A DNA stretch of 64,000 nucleotides from Xestospongia bergquistia (Eukaryota > Porifera > Demospongiae > Haplosclerida > Petrosiidae), in contig OZ014411.1 of the NCBI GenBank assembly GCA_963965975.1, positions 6,433,001 through 6,497,000 of the forward strand. Reading direction: 5' to 3'. Both the position numbers and the translations under genes were made by a program. Positions 9,301 through 44,185 of the stretch are shown here, one piece after another. Position 1 is the stretch's first letter, and each line of letters opens with the position of its first letter. The notes beneath the pieces were generated by a model. The model ran no database searches. It saw nothing but the letters and a program-made list of their open reading frames with translations, and was not told the origin of the DNA.

Positions 9301-10971
9301 GTGACACCAACGGTTATACCTTCAGTTCCGATTGTAAGTTCTGTGCCCTTTTCACCCAATGTTTGTGCTGGCTCATCTCTTTACCAATATCACTATACAA
9401 CATCAGTGATGCAGAGTAGGACAGTCAGTACATTTAGTCCAATTACTTCTGTTACTAATCCAAAACCAACTAGTAGTACTGAAACATCAATACAGACACG
9501 AATAAAAGCTATTCTTTTCAGTAGTGATTCAGAGGCTGAAGAACATATTGTTAAAGGTAACACTTTGTATTCCTCCTGTACGTATGGTATTGGACTTTAT
9601 TTAGAACACTCTGAAAGTACATCTGGCAGTGATCACAGAGGCTATGACTATACTCAAGGATCTCCTCCAGGAGTACTGAAGTCAACTGCAATAACGACAA
9701 AAAAGATGGAGGTACATGCACAACAATCCCCTCAATCTGGTAAGTAATTGCTATTTATATTCAAGAAATTAACTCTGACTGTGTCCGTATAATGCTACAT
9801 TATTTAAATGCTGAATTATTCCTCATTATAATAATTGTCCACTTTAGTATTAACCAATTCATGTACTTGTAACTTTTCCATAGTGGCAGAGTTACATACT
9901 GATCATGAGTTATCAGAAAAAACAAGAGTGAAAAGTGGAATACCAAAGGAGCAGAATGAGGTAGATCCTGTTTCAAAGTCATCAGTTGTAATGACAAGTA
10001 AAGCATCACCTAAAGTTTCACGTTCAAAACAAGCTATGTCCAGTGAATTTTCAATGAAGGGAAATTTTGTTAGAACTGTCTTTGCGTCAAAAATCCCAAG
10101 AAGTCAGCACACTTCCCTGAAAGATCCATTACTAAAACAAAAGTTTCCAGCTTTACCTGGGGCTTCACCATCTCCTCCTATGAGGTCTAAGGCCAAGCAA
10201 AGTTTAAAACAAGCTGTTAATACAAAGGAAAAAACAGATGTTAAACTATCAACTAAGCGAAAACAAGTAGTTCCAACTAAAGACAGAGATGGACGTTTAG
10301 AGTTAGGTCCCCCATTTCTGAAACATGAGAGTGAAGTTACAGAAACACACACAGATCTAGGCCATGTGACAAAAGTTGGACAAGTAAATGCTCATTTGGC
10401 ATTTGCAATGGTATATGAACTTAAAACTATCCTGCCAAATATGAGAATAGACAATGCAGAGAGTCTCTTTGTGACACTTTCCCCCAAGCTATCAAATTGG
10501 AAGATGTTAGGACGATACTTGCTTTTGTCTGATGAAAACATTGAGGTCATATCACGAATTGATTCTGACCAAGACAAGCAGGCATATCACATGTTGAAAC
10601 TTTGGAGTAGTCATAATGATAAAAATGCAACCTTCCTAAGCTTGGGTGAGGCATTGTGCAGTTGTATGCAATATCAACTTGTGGAAGAGCTGAAACGATT
10701 TTCTGAAGGTAATAATGTGTTAACAGTCATTGAAAATTCAAAAGAAAAGAGCAAGTTTGTAAATGATTCAGACTGTGACACTACTTCTGAAGTATCCGAA
10801 GCCTCACTTGTAAAGCAAGAGGAGACATCAGCAAGTAATGTTATTAACTCAGAAGTTGCCTCAGATTTTACTGTAACAGGAACTGTTGACACTGTATTGA
10901 CTATTCTTGAGTGTACACTTAAGTCTCAAGCAAAAGGCTCAAAAGTAACAGTTTATGTGAAGTATGACTAA
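181..10971 (+). CDS. Multi-domain CARD-like/Death/ankyrin/Death protein (5' partial, 23 exons visible)
   Basis: Exons with consistent GT-AG borders and phases: 181-346, 646-723, 803-918, 2273-2642, 2897-3171, 3220-3253, 3307-3945, 3996-4276, 4562-4762, 4809-5009, 5055-5186, 5363-5479, 5908-5988, 6038-6097, 6892-7443, 7532-7630, 7687-7770, 7817-7909, 8121-8226, 8386-8721, 8764-8892, 8936-9739, 9848-10971 (9884 is an in-frame alternative acceptor). They add up to 6078 nt, an exact number of codons (about 2025 residues). Order: CARD-like end, Death domain (~165-235), Ser/Pro/Thr-rich linker, about five ankyrin-like repeats (~654-900), acidic linker, a conserved-looking helical block (~1100-1270), very Ser/Thr-rich region, basic linker, second Death domain (~1850-1930). 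No membrane segment was seen, so it is probably a cytoplasmic scaffold/adaptor in death-fold signalling; the function is inferred from domains. The first exon(s) lie upstream of the window. The exon chain was assembled by eye. Confidence 0.8.
2273..2642 (+). other. First Death domain exon
   Basis: In-frame coding starts directly at the acceptor (2271-2272). The second half has the Death-domain pattern: W in helix 1 (QWTTVAEYIGF), an I-x-x-I helix (EIKTITEAN), a QLDHFLYLW helix with the usual Trp, and a helix beginning T-I-V-I-L-Q-R-L. The first part (ICYQWKTKRG...) is not recognised. Confidence 0.7.
4562..5988 (+). other. Ankyrin-repeat block spread over five exons
   Basis: Exons 4562-4762, 4809-5009, 5055-5186, 5363-5479 and 5908-5988 encode repeats with the ANK signature: APLHLAVAKG...LITYGANVNQ, SPLHIACETGN...LINNGANVNQ, TPLIVASLN...LINSGADIEA, TALDVAVVVNSVDIVQLLL, TPIADAGARGHLEIFKILEEKGADIN, then weaker repeats (SPLLLACMKNQVEIVRYI, PVIEALKGGHFECAKII). 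A family-level role is protein-protein binding. Confidence 0.85.
7532..8520 (+). other. Unrecognised helical region of the Death/ANK protein
   Basis: Five short exons (7532-7630, 7687-7770, 7817-7909, 8121-8226, start of 8386-8721) encode about 170 residues that are less Ser-rich and more hydrophobic/helical than their surroundings, for example IEVLHHFAQYLILACLQRHS and SLVHFFSRYFHDSA. The block sits between two disordered linkers, so it may be a folded domain. I do not recognise the family. Confidence 0.5.
10390..10710 (+). other. C-terminal Death domain
   Basis: Within the last exon, after a Lys-rich linker, about 100 residues show the six-helix Death pattern: LSNWKMLGRYLLLSDENIEV (W-x-x-L-G), ISRIDSDQDKQAYHMLKLW with the Q..YxML..W helix, then FLSLGEALCSCMQYQLVEEL. 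An acidic Ser/Thr tail follows to the stop at 10969-10971. Confidence 0.75.
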
Positions 10972-14657: not shown

Positions 14658-17600
14658 ATGGATCCTAATGATTGTAGAGAAAAGGGGAATGATTTAGTTA
14701 AGGAAGGAAAAATGGAAGAGGCTCTACTATGTTACTCTAGTGGACTTGTTTTCTCTCCTAGTGATCACAGATTACTAAGCAATAGAAGTCTTGTACTGTG
14801 CAAGTTGGGCAAGTAAGTCATTAGCATAAATATATATAGTTCTACAATTATATGATCCCCTGCATTTTTATATGATCCCCTGCATATCTGTATGTTTATT
14901 TTTACATAATTATGTAGGTACACAGAAGCTCTAAAAGATGCTGAGACTTGTATTAATGTACATCCCAAATGGTCCAAAGGATATCTACGTAAATGTGTTG
15001 CTTTGATATACCTAGGACAGTTTAATGAAGCAGAAAAGTCAGCTGAAAAGGGATATTTGCTTCAACATGACAGACGACTTTCAAAAGATCTTGTTTCTCA
15101 GTGGCTCATAGCTCGAGAACATTTATGTGCACCTATTCTAAAGGAATGTATTTTTGAACTTCCAACTGGCACAAAGATTATGTCAGAAAAATATTATATT
15201 GTGCTTTTGAAGATTATACAAGCTCGTTTATCGGTTGCTGGGGGAATGTCATCACATGATATGGGTCACTGTCTACTTGCAATTTGTGAGGAGGTTAGTA
15301 GTACACTTGAGAAATTTGGTGTACAGAGTATTATGCAAATGCAGAGTTGGTGTAATGTTCTTTGGACAGAGCCAGACCCACAGAGTGTAATTATACCTGA
15401 CACTCATCATTCTATGGTTATTGAGAAGACAAAAGAGTTTGTCCAATGGCTAAATGATGGCATTGATGATCTTCTTTACCCTATTTTACGCCCATTTCTT
15501 GCTTTAGCATTCTTAACTGTGTCAACAAGAAGTTGGGTCTTACAGAATGCTGATGCTGGAGCTTTTTATGTGGCTTTACTAATGGAAGGATGCTTTCCAC
15601 TTTTCGAAACAGCCATTTTTGATTCTGAAGACTACATTGGTTATCACATAGGTGCACTCTCTGGTTATCTAGGGTCATTTATAGGTCGTGACCCTTCATT
15701 TTCTGATAAAGATGTGCCTGTTCTTAGTGCTTACTGTCAAAAAATGGAGTCACTACTAGAAGAATATCCTAAGACAGCCATGGAGTATGAAGATGTCAAA
15801 TATATTGCAGTTCATAACCTTGGCATGGTTAAGAGTATGTTAGAAAAACATTGCAATGGTGTCAAAGTACCTGACAAGTTGTTGCCAACAGAATCTGTAG
15901 TGGATGGCCATTCTGCTAGACGTTTAGCAAAAACAAAACCTTTAGAAACCAGAGAATATATACAGAAAATGCTTCGTCAGTACAGTGAAAAGCCAGCTGT
16001 CAAAACTACTGTGGATGATGCCAAAAACTTAGTAGCCTTGTCCGGTAAAATTTAGTAACATAAGCATGATGTTGCATCATTATAGTACCAGTAAATATCA
16101 TAAAGTACTTGCCAAATGTTTTACAACAACCTTAAATCTTGTAGAAAACAATTGACAAAAGTTAGTCAGTGGCCTTGAAGACATACAACCCTTCTTGTTA
16201 TTTATATCAGAGTCTGATTGCATTATAAAAAGATAACATGAACTCAGGAAATGTTAATGTAATTATATATAGTTCTGACATTGTTTTAAGCAAATGATTA
16301 TTGTAACAGAGTTAGTTAGTGTATCAAACGTGCATAAATATTATGCTTATTGCATGTTAATTGGCACATTTATATTTATAGTTGTAATAATGTTTATTAT
16401 TTTATCATATATAGATATTACTATCTTCTCTTTATGTAGTGGCAAGCTTACAGCTAGATGATGACAAGTCTTCACTTCTTCTTCTTCAATATGGTGAACA
16501 AGCTTATGTTAAGAGCTTAATGTATCTTATCTTCAATGAGACGATTAACTTGGATGAAGCAACGTACATGATAACAACTGCCAGACAAGATATTCTGCTT
16601 GTAGCATTATTACTATATAACACGTACCCTGATTTGTATTCAAAGCATTTAGTTGATGTAAGCATAAGATGGAAAGGACTGTATTCAGAATTACGTGCTT
16701 GCTTAACTCAACTTGGTCATGGGGAAAACTGCAGGAAAATATTTCTTGAAATAAATAAAGTGGCTTCATCTGGTAATCATGATGATGTTTTCTACGACAT
16801 GGTACAGCAATATAAAAGAAAAGAAAGGGAAGTTCTTCGGAAATATTTTGTTTCTACCCTTAATACATTGTTTCTACAAAATGTAAATATGATTCAAAAG
16901 GGCCTAGCAGCAGATCAACTTATTCTTGATTACACATTTATTGTTGATCATTATGATCCCCATGTTGAAACAGTTCGTGGATTCCTTGTGTGTATATCAC
17001 ACAACTCTGACCAACCAATCATCAATACTTTTGATTCACTTGCTATAATTGAAGCAATGTCGAAATGGAAGAAAACATTGGAAGTTGATGATAGAACAGA
17101 AATTGTTGATTTTGCAGAACTACCAGGCAAGAAAGAAGCAGCGCACCTTTCATCTTTGCTTTTTCCACTATCTATTAAGAAAATAATTATGAATGATGTA
17201 AATTGTATTGTTGTTGTCCCTGCAGATGGTCTGATGGGTAGCCTTCCTCTAGATTTGTTGCCTCTCCAAGAGGATAAGAGTATTTTTGAAACTCATACAA
17301 CAACTGTTTTGACATCACCAAGAGAATTGATTCGAACATCCACGGTTGCTCATATAATGGAAATGCAGACAAAAGATAGTCATGAAGAAATCATTTCTAA
17401 AGATTTTAAAGACCTTTCAATGTCTGATGAAGGTGTCCGCCAGTTTTTACCTTCAACAATGTATACTATTGAACATTTAAGTCAAGTGGAGTTCTCTGAA
17501 TTTGGAAAAGGAATTGAAACTAGCACTCTTCCAGAAGTGACTTCAAAACCTCGTGAATGTTATCTTATTGCTAATCCTAATTATGATTTGGAGAACAGTA

Positions 17601-18337
17601 GTAGTTACTCACCAAGCCTTTTGACTGATGCTTTGACTTATTTAAGTTCATTTTTTGAAATTACAGCTACACATAAGGTGGAACAGCTTCCTATGTCTCA
17701 AAAAGAAGTAGAGAATGTTGAATTGATTCTTCAGCTTCAATCTCACATTCCATTGCAAATTCATCCACCTGTTTTGTTAGATGACGCAACACTATCCTTC
17801 ATAATGGATATACAGTCTCCTTATCTTCTTCATATATCTACCCATGGGTCATGTGAAACAAAGAATTGGAATGCGTACCATGGAAATATTTGGTCTCTGA
17901 ACCAAGCTGCATTAATGCTAGCTGGAGCGAACACATACTTGTCTAATAATCATTCAAAAATACATCCCAAGGCTGGCATTGGTTGTATTACTGCTCTTGG
18001 GTTAAGTGGTGTAGATCTTAAAGACACCAATCTTGTCTTTCTCTCTGCTTGTATTTCTGCACATGGTAATTCTCCTATACAGGAGGCTGTTGCAAGTCTT
18101 GTATCCAGTGCTAGAGTAGCAGGAGCCAGCACAGTTATTGGCACGTTGTGGACCATCTTTGACATAGCAGCAGTGAAGTTCTCAAGCTATTTCTACAATA
18201 AACTTTGTAGTGCATCAGGAGTGCATCCTTCTGAAGCTCTTGCTGTTGCAAAAAGGGAGATGAAGGCAAATGGAGATCATTGGTATAACTGGGCTGCTTA
18301 TGTCTCCTATGGACTTGATTATCCTTTTATTAAATAG
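14658..18337 (+). CDS. TPR-CHAT domain protein (caspase-like cysteine peptidase)
   Basis: Three exons, 14658-14812, 14918-16044 and 16440-18337, join in frame to 3180 nt (1059 residues). An ATG at 14651 is followed at once by a stop, so 14658 is the start. Residues 1-110 form TPRs; 110-600 are helical; the C-terminal ~380 residues are a CHAT domain. The CHAT part has the expected ADGLMGSLPLDLLPL strand/turn, a catalytic His in HISTHGS and a catalytic Cys in FLSACISAHGN, followed by AGASTVIGTLW. CHAT peptidases belong to the caspase/separase clan and cut specific protein partners. No signal peptide or membrane segment is seen, so it is probably cytosolic. Substrate unknown. Its neighbour is a Death/ANK protein gene. 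Confidence 0.9.
14661..15080 (+). other. HOP-type TPR carboxylate clamp
   Basis: The first three TPR helix pairs match the two-carboxylate-clamp TPR domain of HOP/STI1-type co-chaperones: REKGND (clamp Lys and Asn), LLSNRSLVLCKLGKY (clamp Asn), KWSKGYLRK (clamp Lys and Arg). All five clamp positions appear present. In known proteins this site holds the C-terminal EEVD tail of Hsp70/Hsp90. Confidence 0.75.
17170..18330 (+). other. CHAT peptidase domain with intact His/Cys pair
   Basis: Both catalytic motifs are readable: His in LLHISTHGS (about 17831-17857) and Cys in LVFLSACIS (about 18033-18059). The spacing and the trailing GASTVIGTLW segment fit CHAT. No obvious inactivating change. Confidence 0.85.
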
Positions 18338-18954: not shown

Positions 18955-19658
18955 ATCTTTAAATTACATGTCCCTTTGAGCACTTAATCCTTTTGTCAAT
19001 GAGCTTTAATCATGATGTCCTTTACTGAAACGCTCTATCCTAAATGATCATTTGACCTATGTCAGTGTAACTCTGCTGATAATAATGATAGTTGTCCTTT
19101 TAAGTATTTCCTCAGTTTGATGATAAAGTCCACAGTAAAAACAGAAATGAAAAGAGAAAATGACTCTCTAGATTATGTAGACAACTGTTGGAAGTCAAGC
19201 AGCTTCTTCAGGTGATACTGGACAATATTCTTCACAAACATTGCCACCTTCTACAAGTCTGTCAACTAATCAAATGTTACTGTTCTCATCTACTGTATCA
19301 ACAAGTATGATCTATACTTTCACTAATGGTTGTATCTTTAATTATCTTTAATAGTTTTATTACAAACCATTCAACTTTCTCACCTGATAACACATTTTCT
19401 ACTAATAGTACAACCATTGCATTAAGTAGTGTTATAGTTGTAATTTCAATACCATTTATGTCTGTTCTAGCCTGTGTACTAGGATGCTATATAATAAAAT
19501 GGAAATACAAGTCTACACAAGATACAAAGGAGGTTGTTACCACATGTGCAGAGGTTAATGTTACTGATGATTCTGCTTATGGTATAACTCAAGAACACTT
19601 GTATGAGGAGATAGATAGTCTCCAATCATTAAGAACACTCTGCTGTATAATAAACTAA
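18955..19658 (+). pseudogene. Chimeric remnant: small-gene exon joined to Ig-receptor 3' end
   Basis: 18955-19178 resembles the intron/exon 2 region of the gene at 25566-27217 (compare 26484-26770: same 'ccctttgagca', 'ctgctgat(g)ataat', 'cctcagtttgatgataaa'). From about 19181 it switches to a deleted Ig exon (like 21790-21840 with internal losses), one stalk-exon piece, and a still-open TM/tail exon to 19658. The tail exon keeps the membrane segment and YEEI, but an 8-bp deletion relative to the complete copy removes the second tail tyrosine. The tail exon might still be used, but no signal peptide or Ig domain is left upstream. Confidence 0.7.
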
Positions 19659-19752: not shown

Positions 19753-22700
19753 ATGCAAGGATTTGTGCAGCTATTGAGTACTATATTAATTGCATCTTTT
19801 ATTGTTCCAGTCATTGCACAGGTGAGAGTGTCAAAAGTGCTGCATCTTAGTTATATAATATTATTAAATTGGAGTGTACTCAAGTCAGACTTATGTTCTT
19901 TTGTGGATGGATGGATTGACTGATGAGTTAATCTAAATTATTTTTGTGTCAGTATAAATGAATAATCTGTATTTTATCTTCCTATGATATATTTTCCTGA
20001 TTTAACAAGTGTCATAGTAAGTAATACTTGTATATTTGATGACATGCTGACTCATCCCTTCTGGTAGTACCAGTTCTCACTCCAGCTGGAACAGTAAATG
20101 GGTCAGTATCAAGTCCTTTTGCTTTTCAGTATGTATTATAGCAAAGATACAAATATGCATAAAATTCTTATTTAGATGTGATGTGAGTCCTCTACCTAAT
20201 CAATACATATGGCAAATGAATAGTGTTACTAACCCATCTCAAATTGACTCGTAAGTTATATATCCATTGTATTGTTGTATCATACCTTAGACATCTAACA
20301 CTCTTAAAATTATCCAAGACATTTGTTCAAGTTCATATGCTTCAGTATATTTAATTCAATTGCTGCATTAGAAATTTTCAATATATATTTGTGACCTAAC
20401 TTTCAAAAAGGGATTGTTTTTGTTCAAATGTTTCAAGAAACATGCTGTTGTTGTATACAAAACCATACATTTTCACAGTTGGAAAACAGTAGATAACTTA
20501 AATGTAAAATTTAGTAAACACTCAATTAAAGAATTGTTTACAAGTACAAAAGTGTTTTTAAGTGTTTTGATAGAATTGGTCCTTTCAAATCAGGCCACAT
20601 ATAGACATCTATATATGGTGCAGAAGATTATCAGCCTTATAGCTCTGATCAAATCACTAATATTAGAGTACATTGGTAAACATTTCCTGGTTACATAGCT
20701 AACATTCCTGGAGCAATAGTTCATATAAGCCTGATAATCTAACATTTTTGTGTTCACCAATTCAACTACACCATATAAGATATAATCTAGAGTACAAGTG
20801 TATGATACTAGAGTTCATAGTACACTTTGACAAGCTTGGTAGTATTAGTGTTATGGTATGATATACTAGGGATACCTATACTTACACCTCTATGAGTACA
20901 ATTTATATAATTTCTAGGGTCCAAGGTTTGAAATGACCCTGTGATTTTATATGTATGTATTAAAACCTATCAATACTTTTTATGGATATTAAATTTTTAA
21001 AAATGTTACAAGACAGAACACTTTATACAGTGTACTTTTCTGCTGACTATCAAATCTTAAAAAGACCTTAATGTTGGTTCAGTGTTTATTATTGAGATTT
21101 TTAACTCAGTATTACTATAACATTAATATATTATGGGCCTGACATAACAATATATATTTTGCATACATGTATTAACATTTCATAGACGTTGGTTTATACA
21201 AAATCTACAAGGAGGAATATATAGGTGTGGCTATACTAAAATTGGATGCAGTGGAACATTATGGTCCAATGAAGTCACTATTATAAGTATTTTGAACTAC
21301 TTGATTATCATTGTAGTCGTCTCCTTTTTTCCTATAAGCTCCTCCAATATTGACTGTAAGTCCTGAAAATATCATTGCTGATGAAGGTCAGACAGTTAAA
21401 CTTCAGTGTCAAGCAGCAGGCTATCCTACTCCCTCAATTACCGTAAGTTTGTATCCAAAAATTATGATTAAGTCTGCTAAATAATATTAAATCAATGTTT
21501 TGTCTTGGATTTATAAACATTATAGTCTGTTAAAGTTAATAACAATTTTCCTCAATTGAGAATAATTAGCCCCTCTAATTTGATAAAGTTAGTGTACAAA
21601 GTACACCATATAAGTTACCATCTTCATGGAAAGTATTTTATGTTACTTAATCTGTAGCTTGTGTCAGTGAATTCTGCATCTTTTGTTGTTATTTTATTAT
21701 TTAAAATCATTCATATTTATATATTTAATGTATTGTTCATTTTATTTCATTTAATAGTGGTACTTTAATGGGACAGTTGTTGGAAATCAACCAAATTTGA
21801 CACTAACATCAGCTTCTTCAGATGATAGTGGACAATATACTTGCTTGGCTGTTAATTCAGCTGGTTATGCTTCTTTGTTAGCTCAAGTCTCTATCTTATC
21901 AGGTAAACACATAACCTCTTTTAGTAAGATTTGTTAATCAAGTTGCTTGCTCTGGAATGTGTAATATATATCACCATAATGTTTTTTTAAAATTTATCTA
22001 AAATGGTCCTTATAATTTTTTTAATTTATCATATTGTCAGAATCCTCATAGAAATATGGTAACATGGCAAAAAATACTAGAAGTGTTCTTTTTATACAGC
22101 TACATAATATACATTAGTAATTTACTCAAGGATCTGTCTAAATAGAGGTATGAATGGCTCCACTAACTGAACCTTTTTTTAATATACACTTTGAAACTAG
22201 CCTTAATAATAAACACTATAGTATAAAATACTTAATTGGAACTAGTTTCCTGATTATAAAAGTTGTCAATTTGTTCATCATAAAAGGGTGCATTGTGTTA
22301 ACTGTATACAAATGACATAATTATAGCCAAAGTAATCATAGAACTGTAATTAGTAATTAGTAATTACACATTATATGTATATAGTGTAATTATGAATTAC
22401 TAATTATAAGTATACATTATAATTATATGTATTTTCTATTTCTCAGTATCATCTAGTACAACTGTAGTTCAAGCAGTAACTTCAATTTTTTCACAGATAA
22501 TGCCACCTTCTACAAGTATGTTAACTGATCAATTGTCATTGGTCCCAGCCACTATATCAACAAGTATGATATATACTCCCTCAATTACTGTAAGTTTGTA
22601 TCCAAAAATATGATTAACTCTGCTAAATAAATAATATTAAATCATTGTTTTGTCTTGCATTTATAAACATTATAGTCTGTTAAAGTTAATAATAATATTC

Positions 22701-24213
22701 CTCAATTGAGAATAATTAGCCCCTCTAATTTTGATAAAGTTAGTGTACAAAGCACACCATATAAGTTACCATCTTCGTGGAAAGTATTTTTATGTTACTT
22801 AGTCTGCAGCTTTCGTCAGTGAATTCTGCATCTTTGTTATTTTGTTATTTAAAATCATTCATATTTATATATTTAATGTATTGTTCATTTCATTTCATTT
22901 AATAGTGGTACTTTAATGGGACAGTTGTTGGAAATCAAGTAAATTTGACACTAACATCAGCTCTTTCAGATGATAGTGGACAATATACTTGTTTGGCTGT
23001 TAATTCAGCTGGCTATGCTTCTTTGTTAGCTCAAGTCTCTGTCTTATCAGGTAAACACATAACCTCTTTTAGTAAGATTACATAATTATAGCCAAAGTAA
23101 TCATAGAACTGTTATTAGTAATTAATAATTACACATTATATGTATTTAGTGTAATTATGTATTATTAATTATATTTATACATTATAATTATATTTATTTT
23201 CTATTTCTCAGTGTCATCTAGTACAACTGTAGTTCAAGCAATAACTTCAGTTTCTTCACAGACAATGCCACCTTCTACAAGTATGTCAACTGATCAATTG
23301 TCATTGCTCCAAGCCACCATATCAACAAGTATGATCTTATTTGTGTATACTACCTTTCACTAATGGTTGTATCTTTAATAATTTTATCACAAATCATTCC
23401 AACTTTCTCACTTGATAACACATCTTTTACTAATAACACTATCATTACATTAAGTAGTATTATAGTATGTGTATTTTCTATTTCTCAGTGTCATCTAGTA
23501 CAACTGTAGTTCAAGCAATTACTTCAGTTTCTTCACAGACAATGCCACCTTCTACAAGTATGTCAACTGATCAATTGTCATTGGTCCCAGCTACTATATC
23601 AACAAATATGATCTATTTGTGTATACTACCTTTCACTAATGGTTGTATGTTTAATAATTTTATCACAAATCATTCCAACTTTCTCACCTGATAACAACAT
23701 CTTTTACTAATAATACTATCATTACATTAAGTAGTATTATAGTATGTGTATTTTCTATTTCTCAGTGTCATCTAGTACAACTGTAGTTCAAGCAATAACT
23801 TCAGTTTCTTTGCAGACAATGCCACCTTCTACAAGTATGTCAACTGATCAATTGTCATTTGTCTTAGCTACTACTGTATCAACAAGTATAATTTATTTGT
23901 GTATACCAACTTTTCACTAATGGTTATGTCTTTAATAGTTTTACTGCAAGTCAGTCCAACTCTCTCACCTGATAACACATCCAGTACAATCATTGCATTA
24001 AGTAGTGTTATTGTTGTAATTTCAATAGCACTTATATTTGTTCTAGCCTATGTACTAGGATGGTGTATAATAAAAAGGAAATACATGTCTATACAAGATA
24101 CTATAGAAGTTAATATTACTAGTAATTCTGCTTATGGTATAACTCAAGAACATTTGTATGCAGAGATAAATAATCTTCAATCATTAGATTATGAAGAACT
24201 CTCTGCTGTATAA
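19753..24213 (+). CDS. Ig-superfamily type I membrane receptor with ITAM-like tail
   Basis: Exons: 19753-19821 (signal peptide MQGFVQLLSTILIASFIVPV...), a possible 7-nt microexon 20010-20016, 20068-20101, 20176-20250, 21186-21286 (first Ig-like domain: CDVS...YIWQM...GGIYRCGY), 21339-21442 and 21758-21902 (I-set domain: VKLQCQAAGYPTP, WYFNGT, SDDSGQYTCLAVNSAG), Ser/Thr stalk exons 22447-22563, 23212-23328 and 23766-23885, and 23939-24213 (transmembrane helix IIALSSVIVVISIALIFVLAY and tail). These sum to 1164 nt, 387 residues, in one frame, which supports the microexon. The cytoplasmic tail has tyrosines in YAEI and YEEL spaced like an ITAM, so signalling through SH2 proteins is likely. Ligand unknown. 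Exon usage is inferred. Confidence 0.75.
22447..23885 (+). repeat. Four tandem Ser/Thr-rich stalk exons
   Basis: Near-identical phase 1-1 exons at 22447-22563, 23212-23328, 23489-23605 and 23766-23885 (117, 117, 117, 120 nt). Each encodes a Ser/Thr-rich stretch such as VSSSTTVVQAITSVSSQTMP. The last three are about 277 bp apart. In the third copy the donor GT has become AT (23606-23607), so it should not splice normally. The stalk is likely O-glycosylated and its length can vary by whole exons. Confidence 0.75.
22573..23050 (+). repeat. Tandem duplicate of the second half-Ig exon and its intron
   Basis: 22573-23050 repeats 21426-21902, intron included, with few changes. The copied exon 22906-23050 has the same 145-nt length and the same phases (0 in, 1 out) as 21758-21902. 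The copied first-half exon lacks an acceptor, and the preceding stalk exon ends in phase 1. So exon 22906-23050 fits only as an alternative to 21758-21902, joined to 21442. Confidence 0.75.
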
Positions 24214-24217: not shown

Positions 24218-25120
24218 TTAATGAATGAATAATTATATTTATAAAATTCTCCCAAAAATATTCAAAGTTTGGGTGTGTCTATTTAAAGAATAAACATGAT
24301 TTGGATAACAGATTTGATGACTTGAGTGATCATATCCAAAGATTTGTGCAGCTATTGAGTGCTATATTAATTGCATCTTTTAACATATGTTCCAGTCATT
24401 GCACAGGTGAGAATGCATAAAGTGCTGCATCTTTGTTAGAAAGGTGAATAAGAATGTCACTAAAATCAGACTCACCCTCTTTTGTTGGGTTATGGGGTGA
24501 ATGGATTGATGGGTTAATTCAAAATATTGTTATAGCAGTACAAATATACAATCTATGTGTTTTCAATGGTGTATTTTCATTGATTTAACAGGTAGTAATG
24601 GTAAGTAATTATAATACTTATATATTTGATGATATATTGACTTCAGCTGGAACACTAAATTGATCAAAAGCAAATCCTTTTACATTTCAGCATGTATTGT
24701 AGTAAAGATGCAAGTATTTTTTTTAATTTTTATTTAGATGTCGTGTGAGGCATCTACTCTACTCAATACATATGGCAAATAAATAGTGTTATAAACACAT
24801 CCCAAGTTGACACATTGTATTGTTGTAGTCAACCTTCAGACACCTAACACTCTTAAAATTATTCAAGGCATTTGTTCTAGTTTCATACTTATGCTTCAGT
24901 GTAACTACTGCATTTAAAATACTTCATAATCATACATATATAGTGCAAAAGACAGTTACCTATATAGCTCTGATCAAATCACTAATATTATTATACATTG
25001 GTGAACCCATTGGTGTGATGGCATGATATACTAGGGATACCTGTACTTATAACTTAACGAGTACAAGTTTTTATAATTTCTTGAACCCAAGGTTTGAGAT
25101 GTTCCTGCGATTTTAAATTG
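24214..25120 (+). pseudogene. Third Ig-receptor copy: decayed 5' part
   Basis: 24240-24420 copies the promoter and signal-peptide exon of the complete receptor (compare 19670-19825), but the start ATG is changed (gatcatATCCaaag against gatcATGcaagg) and 'aacat' is inserted. Further blocks match 19990-20250 and 20830-20950 (for example 'gatatactagggatacct'). Ig exons are missing or frameshifted. It ends near 25120. Confidence 0.7.
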
Positions 25121-29221: not shown

Positions 29222-32200
29222 ATGGCCAGCGGTGAAGTATCTTCAGGTAATGTCATTAGATAGAGGTTATGTACATTATCTTCAGCTCTGGCTGAGTGAC
29301 CTGATCTCTTGAAAGTGAACTGTATCTAATTAGTATATATAGCTATTTTACAAGTGATGTGATTACATAGTATATGTTAGCTTTATATCACCTATCTGAT
29401 CTAATGATATGTTGTTCACTCTGTATATAGGACAATACAAACTTGATAGAAGATGTTTCCATCGCTCTCAAGTGATTGGTAGTAATCTATATTTGTGGGG
29501 TGGGGGCCCACCAGGAATGCCTCAAGTACACGACAATGATATGAAAAGAAAACTCACATCTCAAGTACAAATCTTCAATATTATATCTGGTAAATGGGAC
29601 ACTAAGCCCACCAAAGGCAAACCTCCACTAGCATGGACAGGCTATTCCTGTAGTTCATTGAACAATAATATCTATTACTTTGGAGGACATTGTGGTCATT
29701 CTATTTGTTACCATAATAGTCTCACTGAACTAGATACTTCCTCTCTAACCTGGACAGAGATATCACCCACAGATGATAGGAGACCAGTGATGAAGAGAGG
29801 CTTTGGTGATATGATATTGACTGAGTCTGGAGGAGTACATTGTCTTCTAGTTATAGGAGGTATTGGAACCCCACCATCTATATATCTACCACAAACACAC
29901 TATATTCCATCTCCTGGTGGTAGAGTACGTACTAATGAACAGAACCTATATAATATATCCACAGGTAAGTACATTTAAAATGTAACATATTGTACTCTTA
30001 ATACATCACATCACTGTATTGAGAGGAATACAATGGTATCAAAATTAACTTTGTAGCAAGCAGATAATTCTTTCACAAGATAATGACTTCACAATAAAAC
30101 ACTAATAGAGCTACGAAGGTTGTATAATTAGCAGAAATGTCTTTGGAAGACTAGAATGATTATAGGACTGTCTAGCAGGTGTAGTAAGACTGCCATGTTT
30201 ACATATTGTTCATATACGGCATTCAAATTAAATATTTGCTTTCTTAGACATAGTTAATTTTGTAAATTAGAGAATTACAAAAATCTATGTAGAAACATAA
30301 CAGACATCAGTTATTGATGAACAGGAAATGAACAGAATAATTCAATGTAGTGTCATCTCAATAGTACATTTTTCACAAGTAAGTAAACAGGTAGTAACAC
30401 TATAAATATTGTTTGGTGTGACTTTGCTGGGGGGGGGGGGGGGGGGGGGTTAAATTATAACCTTGTTACTGATATAGTCTATTCTAATATTGTAATATTT
30501 ATACTGAGCCATTACCAATATTGATATTAGTGAGAGTAAATCTGCAAACTTAGACCAAACCAATAGATCCACTAACAAACAATGGTCACATTGCTACTAT
30601 AATAAATGTTCTGTTTGTTAGATGAATGGATAGTACCTGATATCAGTGGACAGTGTATGCCATCTAATCATGGTTTTATTATGGAATCAATACACAATAC
30701 CAGAGCAGTCATCTTTGGTGGTGCAATTGAAGGTGGTAGCACATTTAGTAATACTATATATATAGTGGACATCATCAATAATACATTGGTATGTTATATT
30801 ATCATTTATACACTGACTAATAACATGTTATATAATGAGTATTAGTTGAGTTCATTTTTCTATTTCTAGCACTGGCAGACTATTACTAAACCTGACCTAG
30901 CAGTACATTGGCCTGAGGAAACATGGGCTCATGCTTCTAGTATTATCACTGGATCAATATCACCAATGCTAGTGATAATAGGGGGACGGAATAAGGACAA
31001 GAAAACACTAAAAGACTTCTGGATAATGGATATTAATAAGACTTCATGGACAAAGGTATGTCATGATGTGTCACTTAACTAGTTCTATGATAGTATGTAT
31101 CTGTTAAGTAGAAATGTTTGTTATAAATGATTTATGACATAACATCAGCTATAACATCATACTTTACAGCATTCTTAAGGTGATTATTTGAATCAATTTT
31201 TGTTCAAATTGATTTGGTATTAAAGGATTATGTTGTTTTGTATAAACTAATATATGTACATATATTACAGATTAATCTACCTAACTCTGTCACTGAGAGA
31301 TATGGCCACTCTCTATCAACATACATGAAGGCACCACACCGTGTGTGCTTAATTATAGTAGGAGGTACAGTGAAGTTTGGCTTACCTATCACAGACCCCA
31401 ATATAGCAATGATAATAGAACTAGGTAAGTAAGTCATTACATAGAAAAACCACTTTAAAACTACATAATTGATGTCATTGTACTTTGTATTATTGGAAAT
31501 TGCTGTGTCGTCCCAAGCTAATGAAAAGTTATCTGGATATATTTTACATGATATGCAATGACATTGTCAAGGAATATTGACAATTTTGTGTACCAAAATA
31601 CCTGATACATTAGTTGTAGGATATAAAGTGAAGTCATAAACATTTTGGTACATATCCATATTTGGATTTTTTATAATTAAAGCCAAAGAAATGAAGTCAG
31701 GCTAATTGACTAGAGTAACCACATACCTGTTACTATATTGTATACTGACATTAGTAAGTCTTGTATTTTCTAACATATAGTGCTCAATGATGGTCAATGG
31801 TCAGTAGACTTTGTACTAGACTCAAATGGAATGACCTTAACTGATAACTACCAACAAAGTGTACTCACAGAAGGAAGAAAAGAACAGCAACAAAATAAAT
31901 CAAGTCAAGACAACTTATCAGTTAAGGAGACAGTTCTTCAACCTAACTACCAAGGTTATCAAGAAAGGCTATTGAAAGTAGAATCTCAACAGGATAGACA
32001 ACAAGGTAATCTAACTGTTTTGATGTGGGTAGTTTATTTATGAATGGATGTATGGATGAATGATGAATGTGATTGGGTGTTTATATGGACATGGATATAT
32101 AGAATGGTTAGTGGATGGATGGATGAATGATGAGTGTGATTGGGTGTTTATATGGACATGGATATATAGAATGGTTAGTGGATGAATGGATGAATGATGA

Positions 32201-35200
32201 GTGTGATTGGGTGTTTATATGGACATGGATATATAGAATGGTTAGTGGATGAATGGATGAATGATGAGTGTGATTGGGTGTTTATATGGACATGGATATA
32301 TAGAATGGTTAGTGGATGGATGGATGAATGATGAGTGTGATTGGTTGTTTATATGGACATGGATATATAGAATGGTTAGTGGATGTATGGATGAATGATG
32401 AGTGTGATTGGGTGTTTATATGGACATGGATATATAGAATGGTTAGTGGATGAATGGATGAATGATGAGTGTGATTGGGTGTTTATATGGACATGGATAT
32501 ATAGAATGGTTAGTGGATGTATGGATGAATGATGAGTGTGATTGTGTGTTTATATGGACATGGATATATAGAATGGTTAGTGGATGAATGGATGAATGAT
32601 GAGTGTGATTGGGTGTTTATATGGACATGGATATATAGAATGGTTAGTGGATGTATGGATGAATGATGAGTGTGATTGGTTGTTTATATGGACATGGATA
32701 TATAGAATGGTTAGCACATACCTGTTACCATATTGTATACTGACATTAGTAAGTCTTGTATTTTCTAACATATAGTGCTCAATGATGGTCAATGGTCAGT
32801 AGACTTTGTACTAGACTCAAATGGATTGACCTTAACTGATAACTACCAACAAAGTTTACTCACAGAAGGAAGAAAAGAACAGCAACAAAATAAATCAAGT
32901 CAAGACAACTTATCAGTTAAGGAGATAGTTCTTCAACCTAACTACCAAGGTTATCAAGAAAGGCTATTGAAAGTAGAATCTCAACAGGATAGACAACAAG
33001 GTAATCTAACTGTTTTGATGTGGGTAGTTTATTTATGAATGGATGTATGGATGAATGATGAATGTGATTGGGTGTTTATATGGACATGGATATATAGAAT
33101 GGTTAGTGGATGAATTAATGGATGAATGATGAGTGTGATTGGGTGTTTATATGGACATGGATATATAGAATGGTTAGTGGATGTATGGATGAATGATGAG
33201 TGTGATTGGGTGTTTATATGGACATGGATATATAGAATGGTTAGTGGATGTATGGATGAATGATGAGTGTGATTGGGTGTTTATATGGACATGGATATAT
33301 AGAATGGTTAGTGGATGAATGGATGAATGATGAGTGTGATTGGGTGTTTATATGGACATGGATATATAGAATGGTTAGTGGATGAATGGATGAATGATGA
33401 GTGTGATTGGGTGTTTATATGGACATGGATATATAGAATGGTTACTGGATGGATGGATGAATGATGAGTGTGATTGGGTGTTTATATGGACATGGATATA
33501 TAGAATGGTTAGTGGATGAATGGATGAATGATGAGTGTGATTGGGTGTTTATATGGACATGGATATATAGAATGGTTAGTGGATGTATGGATGAATGATG
33601 AGTGTGATTGGGTGTTTATATGGACATGGATATATAGAATGGTTAGTGGATGGATGGATGAATGATGAGTGTGATTGGGTGTTTATATGGACATGGATAT
33701 ATAGAATGGTTAGTGGATGTATGGATGAATGATGAGTGTGATTGGGTGTTTATATGGACATGGATATATAGAATGGTTAGTGGATGGATGGATGAATGAT
33801 GAGTGTGATTGGGTGTTTATATGGACATGGATATATAGAATGGTTAGTGGATGAATGGATGAATGATGAGTGTGATTGGGTGTTTATATGGACATGGATA
33901 TATAGAATGGTTAGTGGATGGATGGATGAATGATGAGTGTGATTGGGTGTTTATATGGACATGGATATATAGAATGGTTACTGGATGGATGGATGAATGA
34001 TGAGTGTGATTGGGTGTTTATATGGACATGGATATATAGAATGGTTAGTGGATGAATTAATGGATGAATGATGAGTGTGATTGGGTGTTTATATGGACAT
34101 GGATATATAGAATGGTTAGTGGATGAATGGATGAATGATGAGTGTGATTGGGTGTTTATATGGACATGGATATATAGAATGGTTAGTGGATGTATGGATG
34201 AATGATGAGTGTGATTGGGTGTTTATATGGACATGGATATATAGAATGGTTAGTGGATGGATGGATGAATGATGAGTGTGATTGGGTGTTTATATGGACA
34301 TGGATATATAGAATGGTTAGTGGATGTATGGATGAATGATGAGTGTGATTGGGTGTTTATATGGACATGGATATATAGAATGGTTAGTGGATGAATGGAT
34401 GAATGATGAGTGTGATTGGGTGTTTATATGGACATGGATATATAGAATGGTTACTGGATGGATGGATGAATGATGAGTGTGATTGGGTGTTTATATGGAC
34501 ATGGATATATAGAATGGTTAGTGGATGAATTAATGGATGGGTTGGTGGGTAAGTGGATGGATGCATTGATGAACAGATGGGCACATGATGGATGTGTGTA
34601 TGGATGTATAGATTGATAAATGGATGTTTAGATGGATGGATATATAGATGGTTAAGTAGATGTTAAAAACAAATAGTCAATTAGGATACTGTATTATTTT
34701 TAGGTGAATTACAAGAAGTGAAGTCTGAGAGAGATCGATATCAACGAAGTAATCTTCATCTACTACAACAAATACAACGAACAGAACAAGCTAGACAAGA
34801 TATTGAACAACAGTCACAGGAGTATAGACGACAGTTACAAGATTGTCAACGACAATTGCAAGAGTCTCAAGAAACTGTTCGTAGTCTACAACAACAGTTA
34901 GAACAGCTTCGTTCACAACAGGGGCAGCCTCATTGGGTTGTGGGTAGAGAGGAAGTGACTATGACACATGAGGTCTTAGGTGGTGGGTCATATGGTGAAG
35001 TTAAAGTGGCTATGTTCCGAGGTTTAAGAGTAGCTGCTAAGTCTCTTCATGGTATCATTATCTCAGACTATACACGAGATCTTTTCTCTAGGGAAATGGA
35101 GATTGCTTCTAGAGTACGTCATCCTAATCTTGTCCAATTCATTGGAGCTACTAGAGTGGGTACACCCATTATCCTTACAGAGATCATGACAACTAGTCTT

Positions 35201-35695
35201 TACAAAGAGCTCCAAAAGAAGGCATTGACACAACCTCAAATATTTGGTATCAGTCAAGATGTTGCTTCAGCTCTGAACTACCTCCATCTATGGAAGCCCA
35301 ACCCTATTATACATCGAGATGTAAGTAGTCCTAATGTCCTGTTAGAACCATCAGTAGGTGATAGCTTCAAAGCTAAAGTAGCTGATTATGGAGCAGCTAA
35401 CCTTCAGCAACAAGCAAATACAGACATGCCAGGAAACCCAGCCTATGCTGCCCCAGAGTCACGTTATCCAGATGATCATACACCAGCAATGGATGTATAC
35501 AGTTACTCTGTTCTCCTAATGGAGATGATCTTACATTATCCACCTGCTATGACTGTTATAGAGAGAGAACAACAAGCTAGTAGAGTATCATGGTCTCCTA
35601 TGTCCTCTCTAATACAGAGGTGTATTAACCGAGATCATCGCCATCGTCCAACTATGACCCAGATCTTAGATGAACTTAAACTACTGAATGTCTAA
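29222..35695 (+). CDS. Kelch-propeller / coiled-coil / protein kinase (intact copy 1)
   Basis: Exons 29222-29246, 29431-29964, 30622-30788, 30870-31055, 31271-31424, 31781-32005, 32776-33000, 34704-35695 join to 2508 nt (835 residues with both copies of exon 6). Six kelch-like blades end in GG strands (LYLWGG, IYYFGGH, LLVIGG, AVIFGG, LVIIGG, LIIVGG). A Gln-rich coiled coil follows (RQDIEQQSQEYRRQLQDCQR...), then a kinase domain: GGGSYGEV P-loop, VAAKSL lysine, REMEIASR glutamate, HRDVSSPNVLL catalytic loop, DYG in place of DFG, YAAPES. The catalytic loop is TKL-like rather than classical Tyr type. No signal or membrane segment, so probably cytoplasmic. The only intact member of the local family. 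Confidence 0.85.
30429..30449. repeat. 21-base G homopolymer in intron 2
   Basis: An uninterrupted run of about 21 G lies in an otherwise AT-rich intron. It could form G-quadruplex; its exact length may also be a sequencing or assembly artefact. Confidence 0.8.
31722..33040 (+). repeat. Duplicated symmetric exon 6 of the kelch-kinase gene
   Basis: 31722-32040 and 32715-33035 are near-identical and include the intron end, acceptor, the 225-nt exon (31781-32005 and 32776-33000), donor and start of the next intron. Both exons are open and in phase 1-1, so including one, both or neither keeps the frame. They differ at only a few residues (for example GMTLTD/GLTLTD, KETVL/KEIVL). Confidence 0.85.
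32041..32712. repeat. 67-bp minisatellite array 1 (about 10 units)
   Basis: Tandem units starting 'agaatggttagtggatg' recur every 67 bp (for example 32101, 32168, 32235). Units vary mainly in ggatgGatg/ggatgAatg/ggatgTatg. Intronic, between the two exon 6 copies. Confidence 0.95.
33041..34620. repeat. 67-bp minisatellite array 2 (about 22 units)
   Basis: The same unit as array 1, with occasional 71-bp units carrying an extra 'atta' (near 33115, 34055, 34528). The right end decays into shorter ggatgg-type repeats up to about 34650. Intronic, before the kinase exon. Confidence 0.95.
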
Positions 35696-36870
35696 TGTAC
35701 TAGTCAATATCAAATCTGCTTACTAAACACGTTTTGTGTGGTACTTGTTAGAATTTGCATACACTTTCACTTTAATAGTAATATTTACTGTTTGTACAAT
35801 ATTAGGACATTGTATTACTACTACTTTTCTTAACAAGTTTGTGGAATTTAATAATTTCATCAGTACATATTATTATATGAGTATAAAGTATTCATTACCT
35901 GTATTACAAATGGATAGACAATCATCCTCATTACTAAACTTGCTAAAACAACTTGCTGAAGTGACAATATGTCAACTAAAGAGAGAGTTCTTGATTGTAA
36001 ATAGTTATCTTAATTGACTGTACTATATAGCTTAACAAATGAAAAAACTTAAATCTCAACAAATCTTAGTAATTTTATTAAACACTTCATTTAACATTAG
36101 TTTATCAAGCAAATTAAACATACACTGAAATGCTTAGTTTTAAAGTTAATACATTTAAAGACTATTAAAGCAACTAATTGTTATTTAAGCTTGCCACTTG
36201 AGCTGCAAAAACAAATGATGCAAGTCTCCTGTGCTATTCTAGAGATAAAGATCTGTTATTACTAATTGCTTTTGCTGGTTACTCAGAATGGCATTGTACC
36301 ATATACAAATCCCCTAACAACTTTAGAACACTAATATTGTATTGTCATGCTAGCGACAATTGTGGAGGTTTAGCACTGTGGATCTCAATGGGTGTCCTCA
36401 ATCAAGGTTACAGCAAGTTACTATCTTTGACTTTAACTAATGTTAAAGACAACAAGGAACATGACAAATTATGAAAATGGTGGAATACATAACAGTGAAG
36501 AGATGTTGCCATAATGATTAAAAACATCAGCAATACACTGTGCTGTCCTTACTAGTATATTCATAGAACAAGTATCAGAATTATCATGATAAAACGATGC
36601 TTTTGTTTTATACCACAAACACTGCAACAATAAAGTGTATGATTGATTTAGTTATTAAAATTGTGTCAGTTCATTATAATTCTATAATACATCTCTTACA
36701 ACTAACTTTACAAAGCATAGTATACTTTATAATGCTCAATATTTTTGAAGTACTGTTATATAGGTGACCTTGTTATCTACTATAACTTAGTCTTAATACT
36801 TCCAAACATGTTATACTAGTAGTAGACTACCACATTGTATATGACGTTAGTACTCTTGCGTTCTCTCACA
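35696..36870. other. 3' flank of kelch-kinase copy 1
   Basis: The first ~320 bp is related to the 3' flanks of copies 2 and 3 (42890-43300, 48449-48860) and contains an open frame ending 36017 that is partly shared with them (TxCQLxRxFLxV). The rest is AT-rich with no recognised gene. Confidence 0.5.
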
Positions 36871-36873
36871 TAG

Positions 36874-37325
36874 TCCACAATGATGATCAATGGTCAGTAG
36901 GGTTTGTACTAGACTCTAATAAACTGACTTCAATGAATAACTATCAACAAATAGTACTAAAACAATTCACAAAAGTAAGGAGACACTGGATAGAACAACA
37001 AATGAAATCAACTCGAAACAACTTGTTAGCTAAGGGACAGTTCTTCAAGCTAACTATCGTGATGATCTTTTAGTTGCTCAACAAAACATACAAAGTCTTC
37101 AAGAAAGACTGCTAGAACTAGAATCTCAACAAGATAGACAGACAACAAGGTAACCTAACTATTATGTGGGTTGTTTATGTATAAATGATGTTTGTGATTG
37201 AGTGTTGTATGGATGTATTGATTGGGTGGGAAATGTGAAACTAGAAAAAGCTAGACAAGATATTGTACAACAGTCATAGGAATATAGACAACAGTTACAA
37301 GATATTCAACAACAGTCAGTCAGTA
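36874..37325 (+). pseudogene. Kelch-kinase fragment (exon 6 and coiled-coil piece)
   Basis: 36874-37151 matches the exon 6 region of copy 2 (DQWSVGFVLDSN...), with one base lost in the segment 'aaggGACAG' relative to 'aaggAGACAG' and a 4-bp insertion near its donor. 37235-37320 matches the coiled-coil start, with a TAG in place of a Gln codon ('cagtcatagg'). Kelch and kinase parts are absent. Confidence 0.75.
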
Positions 37326-37329
37326 TCGA

Positions 37330-38078
37330 TCCTAGCCATAGATCTTCTTCATCCTAGCCATTTTTTCTGTTTTGTTAGAGTTTAGGATGTGATTGTGATT
37401 TCCTCTGACATCTTTGACAATGTCATCCTTCATTGTTTCTCCAAAATTCTTTACCATTCTTTCCCTTTTTAATAGTCAAATATCTATATCCTCCACCTTT
37501 CTGTGTAGTAAAAAAAGTTGCATTCCATCATAAACTGAGTAAACATTGCTAAAACTGTTAGTGTTGCTTTTATATGCTGAACTGTTTGACTTGATAAACT
37601 TAGTTTGTGCAATTATTTCTTGTATCACCAAAAACACCAAAGACCATAAAGGTATAATGCTAGAATGAAATTTATAGAGACTTCTGTTTGGTCATTTACT
37701 AGATATATGACCAAGTTATTATCTAAAAGGTAATTCTAATACAAAAATGAGAGTTGGCATTTTGGGAGTACTAGTTGACATTTTGGGGCATGATATTTTG
37801 AGAGTTGACATTTTGTGAAGTAACATTTTGGGAAGTATATAATCATTGAAACTTGGTCAGTAGAGTTGTAACAATAGAAAATAAAATAGATTAATTAAAC
37901 TTACTAAACTCAGTTCTGTGCATGGTTTTCTAGAGCTGTCATATAGAACATTACTTCATTTCATAGTAAAGTCTGGCAACACATTTTTACATCCATGCAT
38001 GCAAGTCATGCGTCCATTGTGTAAAGAGATCACGTGATAATTTTAATAGTGTGGGAGTGGCTCAACATGTGAGCTAAA
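37330..38078. other. Intergenic with a short GACATTTTGG repeat
   Basis: No gene recognised. At 37750-37835 the motif 'gacattttgg' or close variants recurs about five times. The last ~50 bp before 38079 is the probable 5' UTR of copy 2. Confidence 0.5.
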
Positions 38079-42889: not shown

Positions 42890-43646
42890 TGTACTAATCA
42901 ATATCAAATTTGCTGACTAAACAAGTATTCTATGGTACATTGTTAGAATTTGTTTGCATATTTCACTTCATTAGTAATATTTGTTGAGTGTATAATATTA
43001 TAACTGCTACTTTTCCAACAAGTTTATGGAATTTAATCATTTCACCAGTACATACTATTATATTAGTATAAAGTATTCATTATGTATACTACAAATGAAT
43101 GGACAACTGACCTCATTACTAGGTTGGCTAAAACAACTGTTGGAGTGGTAACTTGTCAACTACAGAGAGACTTCTTGAATGTAACTACCTCAAATAGTTC
43201 AACAAATTTGAATGACCACCTTGTGGAATTTAATGAAGATTCAACAGTAATATTATATGAGTATAAAAAATCACTTTCATCAAATTATATTACAATTGAC
43301 TGATCTCATCACTACTGACAAACAGTACTAAAACAATGTACTGATGGAAAATTCAAATGATAAGTTTTAACAGATAAATGAGATACATTATGAAAGATTA
43401 TATGTTTCCTATACATTTCCATGAGAAAAATCTTTGTGGAAATACAATAGCCAAAAGTGTGGTTGAGTAAGACAAAAGTCACTATCACTATCACTAGCTA
43501 TTGTAAATACATAATTATGTTTCACGGGTCCTACCAGTAAGATTTGTGGTTTGTTTTTGGCGGGTGAGAGCCTGAGACTAATCATTTTCCTTGATTTCAG
43601 ACTCTATAGCTCATAAATTTTAGATATTTATTTTAATGGGAGGATG

Positions 43647-43859
43647 AATTAATGTGTCAACTTTCATTGGCTGCAGACATTTTGAAACTGGTTAATCAGT
43701 GATAATTAGTAGGTGTTCACATAAGAACAGGATTTTTATGGAGTCAAAAGTGTTGAAGAATACAAACACAGGAAATTTAATAACAGATAAAATATATGGA
43801 ATAGAATTTTAAATTGTACAGGAGTTACAGCAGAGAGGATTTCAGGCAATTCCAGCTTG
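43647..43859. repeat. 213-bp repeat, copy a
   Basis: Near-identical to 44186-44399 and 49207-49420. The sequence runs from 'aattaatgtgtcaac' to 'caattccagc'. No coding role visible. Confidence 0.85.
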
Positions 43860-44185
43860 TGTTATACATTGTTAGAATTTGTATACATTTTTCACTTTAT
43901 TATTAATACTTACTCTGTGTAAAGTATTAGGACATTTTATTGCTACTTTTCGTCAATTGTAAATGACAAGTTAATATAATATGAGGTTTGATAATTATAG
44001 TCTCTGAGTTGACAAGAGTCCAATATTAAAATTTAATTGCGATATGTATGGAATATGGAGTGAAAAATATTCTCATTTTATTGTGTACAATTTGCACTGC
44101 AGTACTTAAAATTGTTGTTTAGTAAATCCTCAAAGATGAAGAATGAAAGGAATTCCAAGGGTCTCCTATGTCCTCTCTAATACAG

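What the first reader, a model, noticed from the sequence alone, without database searches (positions are those of the whole stretch)
24120..24213. ITAM-like motif in the tail of a sponge-type Ig receptor
The tail reads EHLYAEINNLQSLDYEEL, which satisfies the ITAM consensus [DE]xxYxx[LI]x(6-8)Yxx[LI] (Glu at -3, Ile at +3, seven-residue spacer, Leu at +3). It follows a membrane helix in a protein with signal peptide and Ig domains. ITAMs are best known from vertebrate immune receptors; one in an early-branching animal would be of real interest. Seen: the motif. Inference: that it signals.
Basis: partly seen in the sequence, partly recalled or inferred. Interest (0 to 1): 0.8.

Follow-up and report, generated by a model that had tools for sequence, protein, structure and literature searches.

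The report
ITAM-tailed Ig receptor, probably sponge
A gene in what looks like a sponge genome encodes a cell-surface immunoglobulin receptor whose tail fits the ITAM signalling motif known from vertebrate immune cells, the same genome also encodes a SYK-type kinase of the kind that reads such motifs, and a sister gene carries the same outer part on a tyrosine phosphatase instead; whether the tail really signals is untested.

Summary
EHLYAEINNLQSLDYEEL lies at 24148-24201 (+), in one terminal exon (23939-24213) with the membrane helix and stop. A gene model with GT-AG borders reads in frame: signal peptide, 7-nt microexon, two Ig-like domains, repeated Ser/Thr stalk exons, TM/tail. The genome also holds a SYK orthologue and nine places with SHP-type tandem SH2 plus phosphatase matches. 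The first half of the motif is more constrained than the TM (copies A-E: 4 silent, 0 replacement changes, against 2 and 19; Fisher P=0.0012).

Of eight related tails, two meet the strict consensus and one of those is broken. Copy A, upstream, lost the second tyrosine by an 8-nt deletion; three others keep the spacing but have Pro at +3. A tail docking single SH2 domains is a serious rival. ITAM or ITIM receptors are already reported in Hydractinia, Botryllus and oyster, and SYK in sponge.

Unexpected: the Ig1 exon has two matches in the genome, this receptor and a gene on contig C11 that splices in frame into a receptor tyrosine phosphatase. Species and expression are unknown.

The parts
19753..19821 (+). 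Copy B exon 1: start codon and signal peptide MQGFVQLLSTILIASFIVPVIAQ
   Evidence: in-frame model; homologous exon on C11
20010..20016 (+). 7-nt microexon TGTCATA joining signal peptide to Ig1 in phase
   Evidence: C11 gene D has TGTAATG at the same place before gtaagt
20068..20250 (+). Ig1 first half, exons 20068-20128 and 20176-20250; weak Ig_2 match
21186..21286 (+). Ig1 second half (YRCGYTKIGC); two matches in the genome at E up to 10, this one included
21339..21902 (+). Ig2, exons 21339-21442 and 21758-21902; Ig_3/I-set
22906..23050 (+). Duplicate Ig2 second-half exon, by phase usable only in place of 21758-21902
22447..23885 (+). Ser/Thr stalk exons, symmetric phase 1-1 cassettes: 22447-22563, 23212-23328, 23489-23605 (no GT donor), 23766-23885
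23939..24213 (+). Terminal exon: membrane helix, KRK, 46-residue cytoplasmic tail, stop; AATAAA begins at 24212
24148..24201 (+). ITAM consensus EHLYAEINNLQSLDYEEL
19355..19658 (+). Copy A TM/tail exon (acceptor inferred by eye): SAYGITQEHLYEEIDSLQSL, then an 8-nt deletion removes the second Tyr and shifts the frame
24334..24814 (+). Copy C: decayed signal-peptide and Ig1 exons downstream of copy B

Best explanation
Copy B is a single-pass Ig receptor that carries its own ITAM. A Src-family kinase phosphorylates the tail tyrosines (YAEI and YEEL, ten residues between them) when the receptor is clustered by its ligand; the doubly phosphorylated pair recruits the genome's SYK orthologue through its tandem SH2 domains, and SYK signals onward. 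The upstream NSAYGI tyrosine is an accessory NxxY or SH2 site. Shown: the sequence, an in-frame splice model, SYK with SH2, I-SH2, SH2 and kinase exons, constraint on part of the motif. Inferred: expression, phosphorylation, binding, signal.
For: Strict consensus in the cytoplasmic tail beside a TM. SYK orthologue at C5:8.493-8.494 Mb (minus): joined tandem SH2 plus I-SH2 aligns over residues 6-249 of 255 to SYK structures, E=2.4e-48, with FLVR-type arginines in both SH2 domains; frames with HRDLAARN, DFG and WYAPE follow (by eye). SH2-kinase frames that look Src-like exist. A paralogue on another contig (E) carries YEEI-x7-YEEL, so by parsimony the full motif predates the split of B and E. 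The 13-codon segment EHLYEEIDSLQSL is identical in protein in A and E with 4 silent differences, while 41 TM/juxtamembrane codons have 2 silent and 19 replacement changes (Fisher P=0.0012); B-E over the 21 codons to SA[VI] has dN/dS 0.20.
Against: Only 2 of 8 related tails meet the strict consensus and one of those sits behind a TAA and an insertion. Copy A lost the second tyrosine and the C1:1.35 Mb group has YDDP. The A-E constraint covers the first tyrosine half only; for DYEEL only B and E can be compared (5 codons, 1 silent, 0 replacement change, by eye) and E is broken. The pairs A-B and B-E show the same direction (3 silent and 3 replacement changes in the motif each) but were not tested. 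Pfam returned nothing for three tails at E up to 10, weak evidence for so short a motif; only one of the three meets the strict consensus. No RNA, phosphorylation or other-species data. One chance match among many receptor tails is not improbable.
Confidence: 0.45

Rival explanations
1. The tail is a multi-site phosphotyrosine dock, not an ITAM: each tyrosine is read by a single SH2 or PTB domain (YEE[ILV] by Src-type SH2, YDDP by Crk/Nck-type SH2, NxxY by PTB, LxYxxL by SHP), and the ITAM fit in copy B is one variant of a tail that drifts in its second site.
For: N-x-[AS]-Y is present in 7 of 8 tails (copy A has DSAY) and YxE[ILV] in 7 of 8, whereas the strict pair is in 2 of 8 (counted by eye). 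A receptor at C11:5.484 Mb whose ectodomain frame matches no Pfam family keeps SAYGI...YEEL but has no YxxL second site. SHP-type tandem-SH2 phosphatases are many. LDYEEL also fits an ITIM. SH2, PTB and ITIM preferences are recalled, from no call.
Against: The ten-residue spacing between the two tyrosines is kept in 5 of 8 tails, including the more diverged C1:1.35 Mb group.
Confidence: 0.3
2. YAEI and YEEL are YxxPhi endocytic sorting signals read by the AP-2 mu subunit, controlling receptor uptake, not tyrosine signalling.
For: Both sites fit YxxPhi and sit on a short tail near the membrane; N-x-x-Y is also an uptake-type motif (recalled).
Against: The acidic residues (YEE) fit SH2 sites better, and AP-2 does not need fixed spacing (both recalled). 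No direct test.
Confidence: 0.1
3. The locus is a decaying tandem array and copy B's tail is a chance or relict motif without function.
For: Neighbours are broken: copy A frameshifted, copy C decayed, one stalk exon of copy B without GT donor, copies E and L008 disrupted. In TM and juxtamembrane codons replacement changes are as common per site as silent ones, or more so.
Against: Copy B has a continuous frame from start to stop over 11 exons; B-D Ig domains have dN/dS 0.61 over 115 codons and B-E motif 0.20 over 21.
Confidence: 0.15

Closest known systems
Hydractinia Alr and Botryllus FcoR allorecognition receptors (as described in PMC12065747, passages)
   Same: Invertebrate candidate recognition receptors with ITAM/ITIM (Hydractinia) or ITIM/hemITAM (Botryllus FcoR, Ig superfamily) in the tail; the paper reports the Src/Syk/Shp pathway expressed in Botryllus
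   Different: Ectodomains not compared here; no allorecognition evidence for this gene; the source is inferred to be a sponge
Oyster CgIgIT2 (PMC11999971, passages)
   Same: Extracellular Ig domains, TM and one classic ITAM in a single chain
   Different: Five Ig domains against two; binding and ERK data are reported for CgIgIT2, none exist for this
Vertebrate ITAM receptors (FcgammaRIIA, CD3, CD79) and DAP12 (recalled)
   Same: Consensus, spacing of seven, SYK partner in the genome; like FcgammaRIIA the ligand-binding chain carries its own motif
   Different: No homology of the tail shown; second site not kept in most of the eight tails read
Paired receptors (SIRP, PILR, KIR types; recalled)
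   Same: One ectodomain family on opposite tails
   Different: Here the other partner is a receptor tyrosine phosphatase (gene D on C11) in place of an ITIM chain

Membership tests
ITAM-bearing immunoreceptor | [DE]xxYxx[LI]x(6-8)Yxx[LI] | tested here: met
ITAM-bearing immunoreceptor | Motif in a cytoplasmic tail after a membrane helix of a secreted-route protein | tested here: met
   (prediction; no RNA)
ITAM-bearing immunoreceptor | Tandem-SH2 SYK-family kinase present in the same organism | tested here: met
ITAM-bearing immunoreceptor | Full motif conserved among relatives | tested here: inconclusive
   strict in 2 of 8 tails (1 intact), spacing in 5 of 8; first half constrained; other species not available
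ITAM-bearing immunoreceptor | Phosphorylated on both tyrosines and bound by SYK | not testable with these tools
   bench test
ITAM-bearing immunoreceptor | Match to a Pfam model | tested here: not met
   0 families for 3 tails at E up to 10, of which only copy B's meets the strict consensus; filters make this weak for short motifs, and the motif is not defined by a Pfam match
SYK/ZAP-70 kinase (C5 gene) | SH2, I-SH2, SH2, tyrosine kinase in that order | tested here: met
   kinase frames read by eye
Receptor tyrosine phosphatase (C11 gene D) | Signal peptide, Ig domains, TM, PTP domain in one reading frame | tested here: met
   13 exons from start codon to the segment before the PTP domain join in frame; PTP exons matched Y_phosphatase when joined; phases of the next two exons checked by eye
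Receptor tyrosine phosphatase (C11 gene D) | Catalytic HCxxGxxR loop | tested here: inconclusive
   the DNA held ended before that part

The most novel reading that the evidence does not exclude
An early-branching animal runs a germline paired-receptor circuit on phosphotyrosine: one Ig ectodomain, found at two places in the genome, is carried on an ITAM-tailed receptor that recruits SYK (window copy B) and on a receptor tyrosine phosphatase that removes the phosphates (gene D on C11), so that one ligand is read by an activator and an eraser. Together with SYK and an expanded SHP family, the kinase/phosphatase balance of lymphocyte signalling would be as old as the split of that lineage from other animals.
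Probability: 0.25. Interest if true: 0.8.

Novelty: new member of a known kind. Interest (0 to 1): 0.5.

Why it matters
The passages I read place ITAM or ITIM receptors in cnidarians, tunicates and molluscs, and SYK in sponges; a sponge receptor to pair with sponge SYK would be the missing piece. If it binds, ITAM-SYK signalling may be as old as animals, and that is testable with one peptide and one protein. The same-ectodomain phosphatase gives a second, less expected prediction.

Tried and rejected
Pfam on three tails: no family. DNA pattern for the NSAYGI element: 6 places, against 2 for the reversed-pattern control; the one place not seen before, C1:4474411, has no open frame of 70 aa or more on the + strand of the 1.2 kb looked at. 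Silicatein-type pattern as a sponge marker: one hit, but it encodes a cysteine at the catalytic place, so it says nothing (the silicatein signature is recalled). Structure prediction was not run: that tool takes proteins read straight from the DNA, and single exons hold half-domains. The idea that the signal-peptide exon joins Ig1 directly was rejected because the phase fails. My first count of a 7-nt deletion in copy A (still in notebook entry 1) was wrong: it is 8 nt. The C2 receptors with DNIAYGI tails (E 0.07 and 0.11) are too weak to count as relatives. Paper searches with ITAM and sponge, Porifera or Amphimedon showed no sponge ITAM receptor in the titles and abstract starts listed, nor did the passages read of PMC9505182 and PMC11999971; most subscription journals are not in that library. 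Searches were for Hydractinia, SH2 evolution, Alr and sponge phosphatases.

Full report
Where it is. The window is C1:6433001-6497000 of an unnamed 146-Mb genome in 21 contigs. The finding is copy B of a small tandem array: A (end at 19658), B (19753-24213), C (decayed, 24334-24814). The motif EHLYAEINNLQSLDYEEL is at 24148-24201.

Gene model. Exons 19753-19821, 20010-20016, 20068-20128, 20176-20250, 21186-21286, 21339-21442, 21758-21902, stalk exons 22447-22563, 23212-23328 and 23766-23885, and 23939-24213 have GT-AG borders and join into 396 residues plus stop; three variants with other stalk or Ig2 exons also stay open. Without the 7-nt microexon the first junction is out of phase; the C11 gene has a 7-nt exon at the same place with the same kind of donor. 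Pfam: Ig_3 2.4e-22 and I-set 1.9e-15 for the second domain; the first alone gives Ig_2 0.015, under the cut-off. AATAAA overlaps the stop in B and lies just before it in A. No expression data were available.

Relatives of the tail in the genome. Eight tails were read: B (YAEI-x7-YEEL, intact); A (YEEI, then 8-nt deletion and frameshift); E on C11:6.194 Mb (YEEI-x7-YEEL, but split by an insertion and preceded by TAA); C1:1345364 and C1:1357059 (YEEV-x7-YDDP, open); C1:1349957 (YEEL-x7-YDDP, frameshifted); C11:6.058 Mb (IVCE in place of YEE, disrupted); C11:5.484 Mb (SAYGI...YEEL, different ending, ectodomain frame without a Pfam match). Strict ITAM: 2 of 8; ten residues between the two tyrosines: 5 of 8; YxE[ILV]: 7 of 8; N-x-[AS]-Y: 7 of 8, copy A having DSAY. 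Counts were made by eye on these outputs. The genome search scores only its best candidates, so the eight may not be all.

Constraint. In EHLYEEIDSLQSL, A and E differ by 4 silent and 0 replacement changes; in 41 TM/juxtamembrane codons by 2 and 19; Fisher P=0.0012. A-B and B-E each have 3 silent and 3 replacement changes in the motif segment, pN/pS about 0.22-0.23, against about 1 in the TM; these pairs were not tested. A-B over 25 tail codons has dN/dS 0.55; B-E over 21 codons 0.20; B-D over 115 Ig codons 0.61. Numbers are small, the pairs are not independent, E is a broken copy, and the comparison was chosen after seeing the data.

Reader and writer enzymes. An SH2 search gave 81 matches. 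C5:8.493-8.494 Mb is SYK: SH2, I-SH2 and SH2 aligned over residues 6-249 of 255 to SYK (E 2.4e-48), slightly ahead of ZAP-70 (3.2e-46), with ABL at 3.8e-19; kinase frames follow. SYK in Amphimedon and in sponge is in print: PMC9601881 and PMC2820527, passages read. Tandem SH2 plus phosphatase matches (SHP type) occur at nine places: seven on C3 (0.917 Mb and six in 1.265-1.284 Mb), one on C6 (0.200), one on C7 (8.318); one of them, C3:1.272 Mb, is split by a stop. I read both SH2 signatures and the phosphatase loop in one frame for L015, L023, L028, L029 and L033 of 8 loci checked; L026 showed one SH2 signature with the loop, L025 is split, and L014 showed two SH2 frames and the start of a phosphatase in separate exons.

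The sister receptor. The Ig1 exon RWFIQ...VTII has two matches in the genome at E up to 10: copy B and C11:6193220. The latter gene (D) joins 13 exons in one open frame with GT-AG borders: signal peptide, microexon, Ig1, Ig2, stalk, TM, an acidic segment and the stretch that leads into a PTP domain. Exons with KNRYRNVVP and SSYINANYI follow in matching phase by eye, then DFWQMVWQ and KCAKYWP; joined pieces match Y_phosphatase E=6e-26, and the ectodomain Ig_3 4.3e-20. The catalytic loop lies beyond the DNA I could hold. Gene D starts about 120 bp after the end of tail E, the same head-to-tail order as A then B in the window.

Reading. That it is an ITAM receptor is the likeliest single mechanism (0.45), because the motif, the tail position, the spacing, the partner kinase and the constraint agree. 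The main rival, a tail of separate SH2/PTB sites, is favoured by what most paralogues actually keep. ITAM or ITIM receptors outside vertebrates are known (PMC12065747, PMC11999971; passages read), so the kind is known; a sponge example would be a new member. That the genome is a sponge's was not shown by any search.

Noticed in passing
G000:C11:6186261-6194603 (L044, minus): Gene D: the same Ig1-Ig2 ectodomain as window copy B spliced in frame toward a receptor tyrosine phosphatase; catalytic loop not reached.
   Followed up: partly
G000:C3:1265457-1283528, C3:916188-917681, C6:199640-201523, C7:8318067-8319560: Nine places with SHP-type tandem SH2 plus phosphatase matches, six of them in one 18-kb stretch (one split by a stop), against two SHP genes in humans (recalled).
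   Followed up: partly
G000:C9:1.99-2.15 Mb, C5:0.44-0.78 Mb, C10:0.97-1.08 Mb, C2:6.83-6.93 Mb: Large arrays of tyrosine-phosphatase matches (194 matches in the genome, a lower bound), on C5 interleaved with Ig matches: perhaps an Ig-RPTP expansion.
   Followed up: no
G000:C6:1.622-1.697 Mb: Cluster of long frames with one SH2 each; the one read (L011) is an SH2-kinase of Src-like look, as is L009 at C6:7.993 Mb.
   Followed up: no
G000:C11:5484162-5484428 (L059): Receptor whose ectodomain frame matches no Pfam family shares the TM/tail module SAYGI...YEEL: tail exons seem to move between receptors.
   Followed up: partly
window 22312-23889: Stalk cassettes of symmetric phase duplicated at steps of 765, 277 and 277 bp, and a duplicate Ig2 half-exon that by phase can only replace the first: material for alternative splicing.
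   Followed up: partly
window 29400-48448: Three like coiled-coil/kinase frames (34685-35695 open; 41861-42889 and 47669-48448 each with one stop at the same place, after NPIIH) and two Kelch frames (29400, 38195) (Pfam run on one of each).
   Followed up: no
window 53304-54368 (-): Glycosyltransferase family 6 protein, Pfam E=7e-64; the family of the ABO transferases (recalled).
   Followed up: no
window 32045-34530: 37-copy tandem array of 67 bp, coinciding with the GC skew of 0.77.
   Followed up: partly
window 16415-18337 and 9835-10971: CHAT-domain and Death-domain frames upstream of the receptor array.
   Followed up: no
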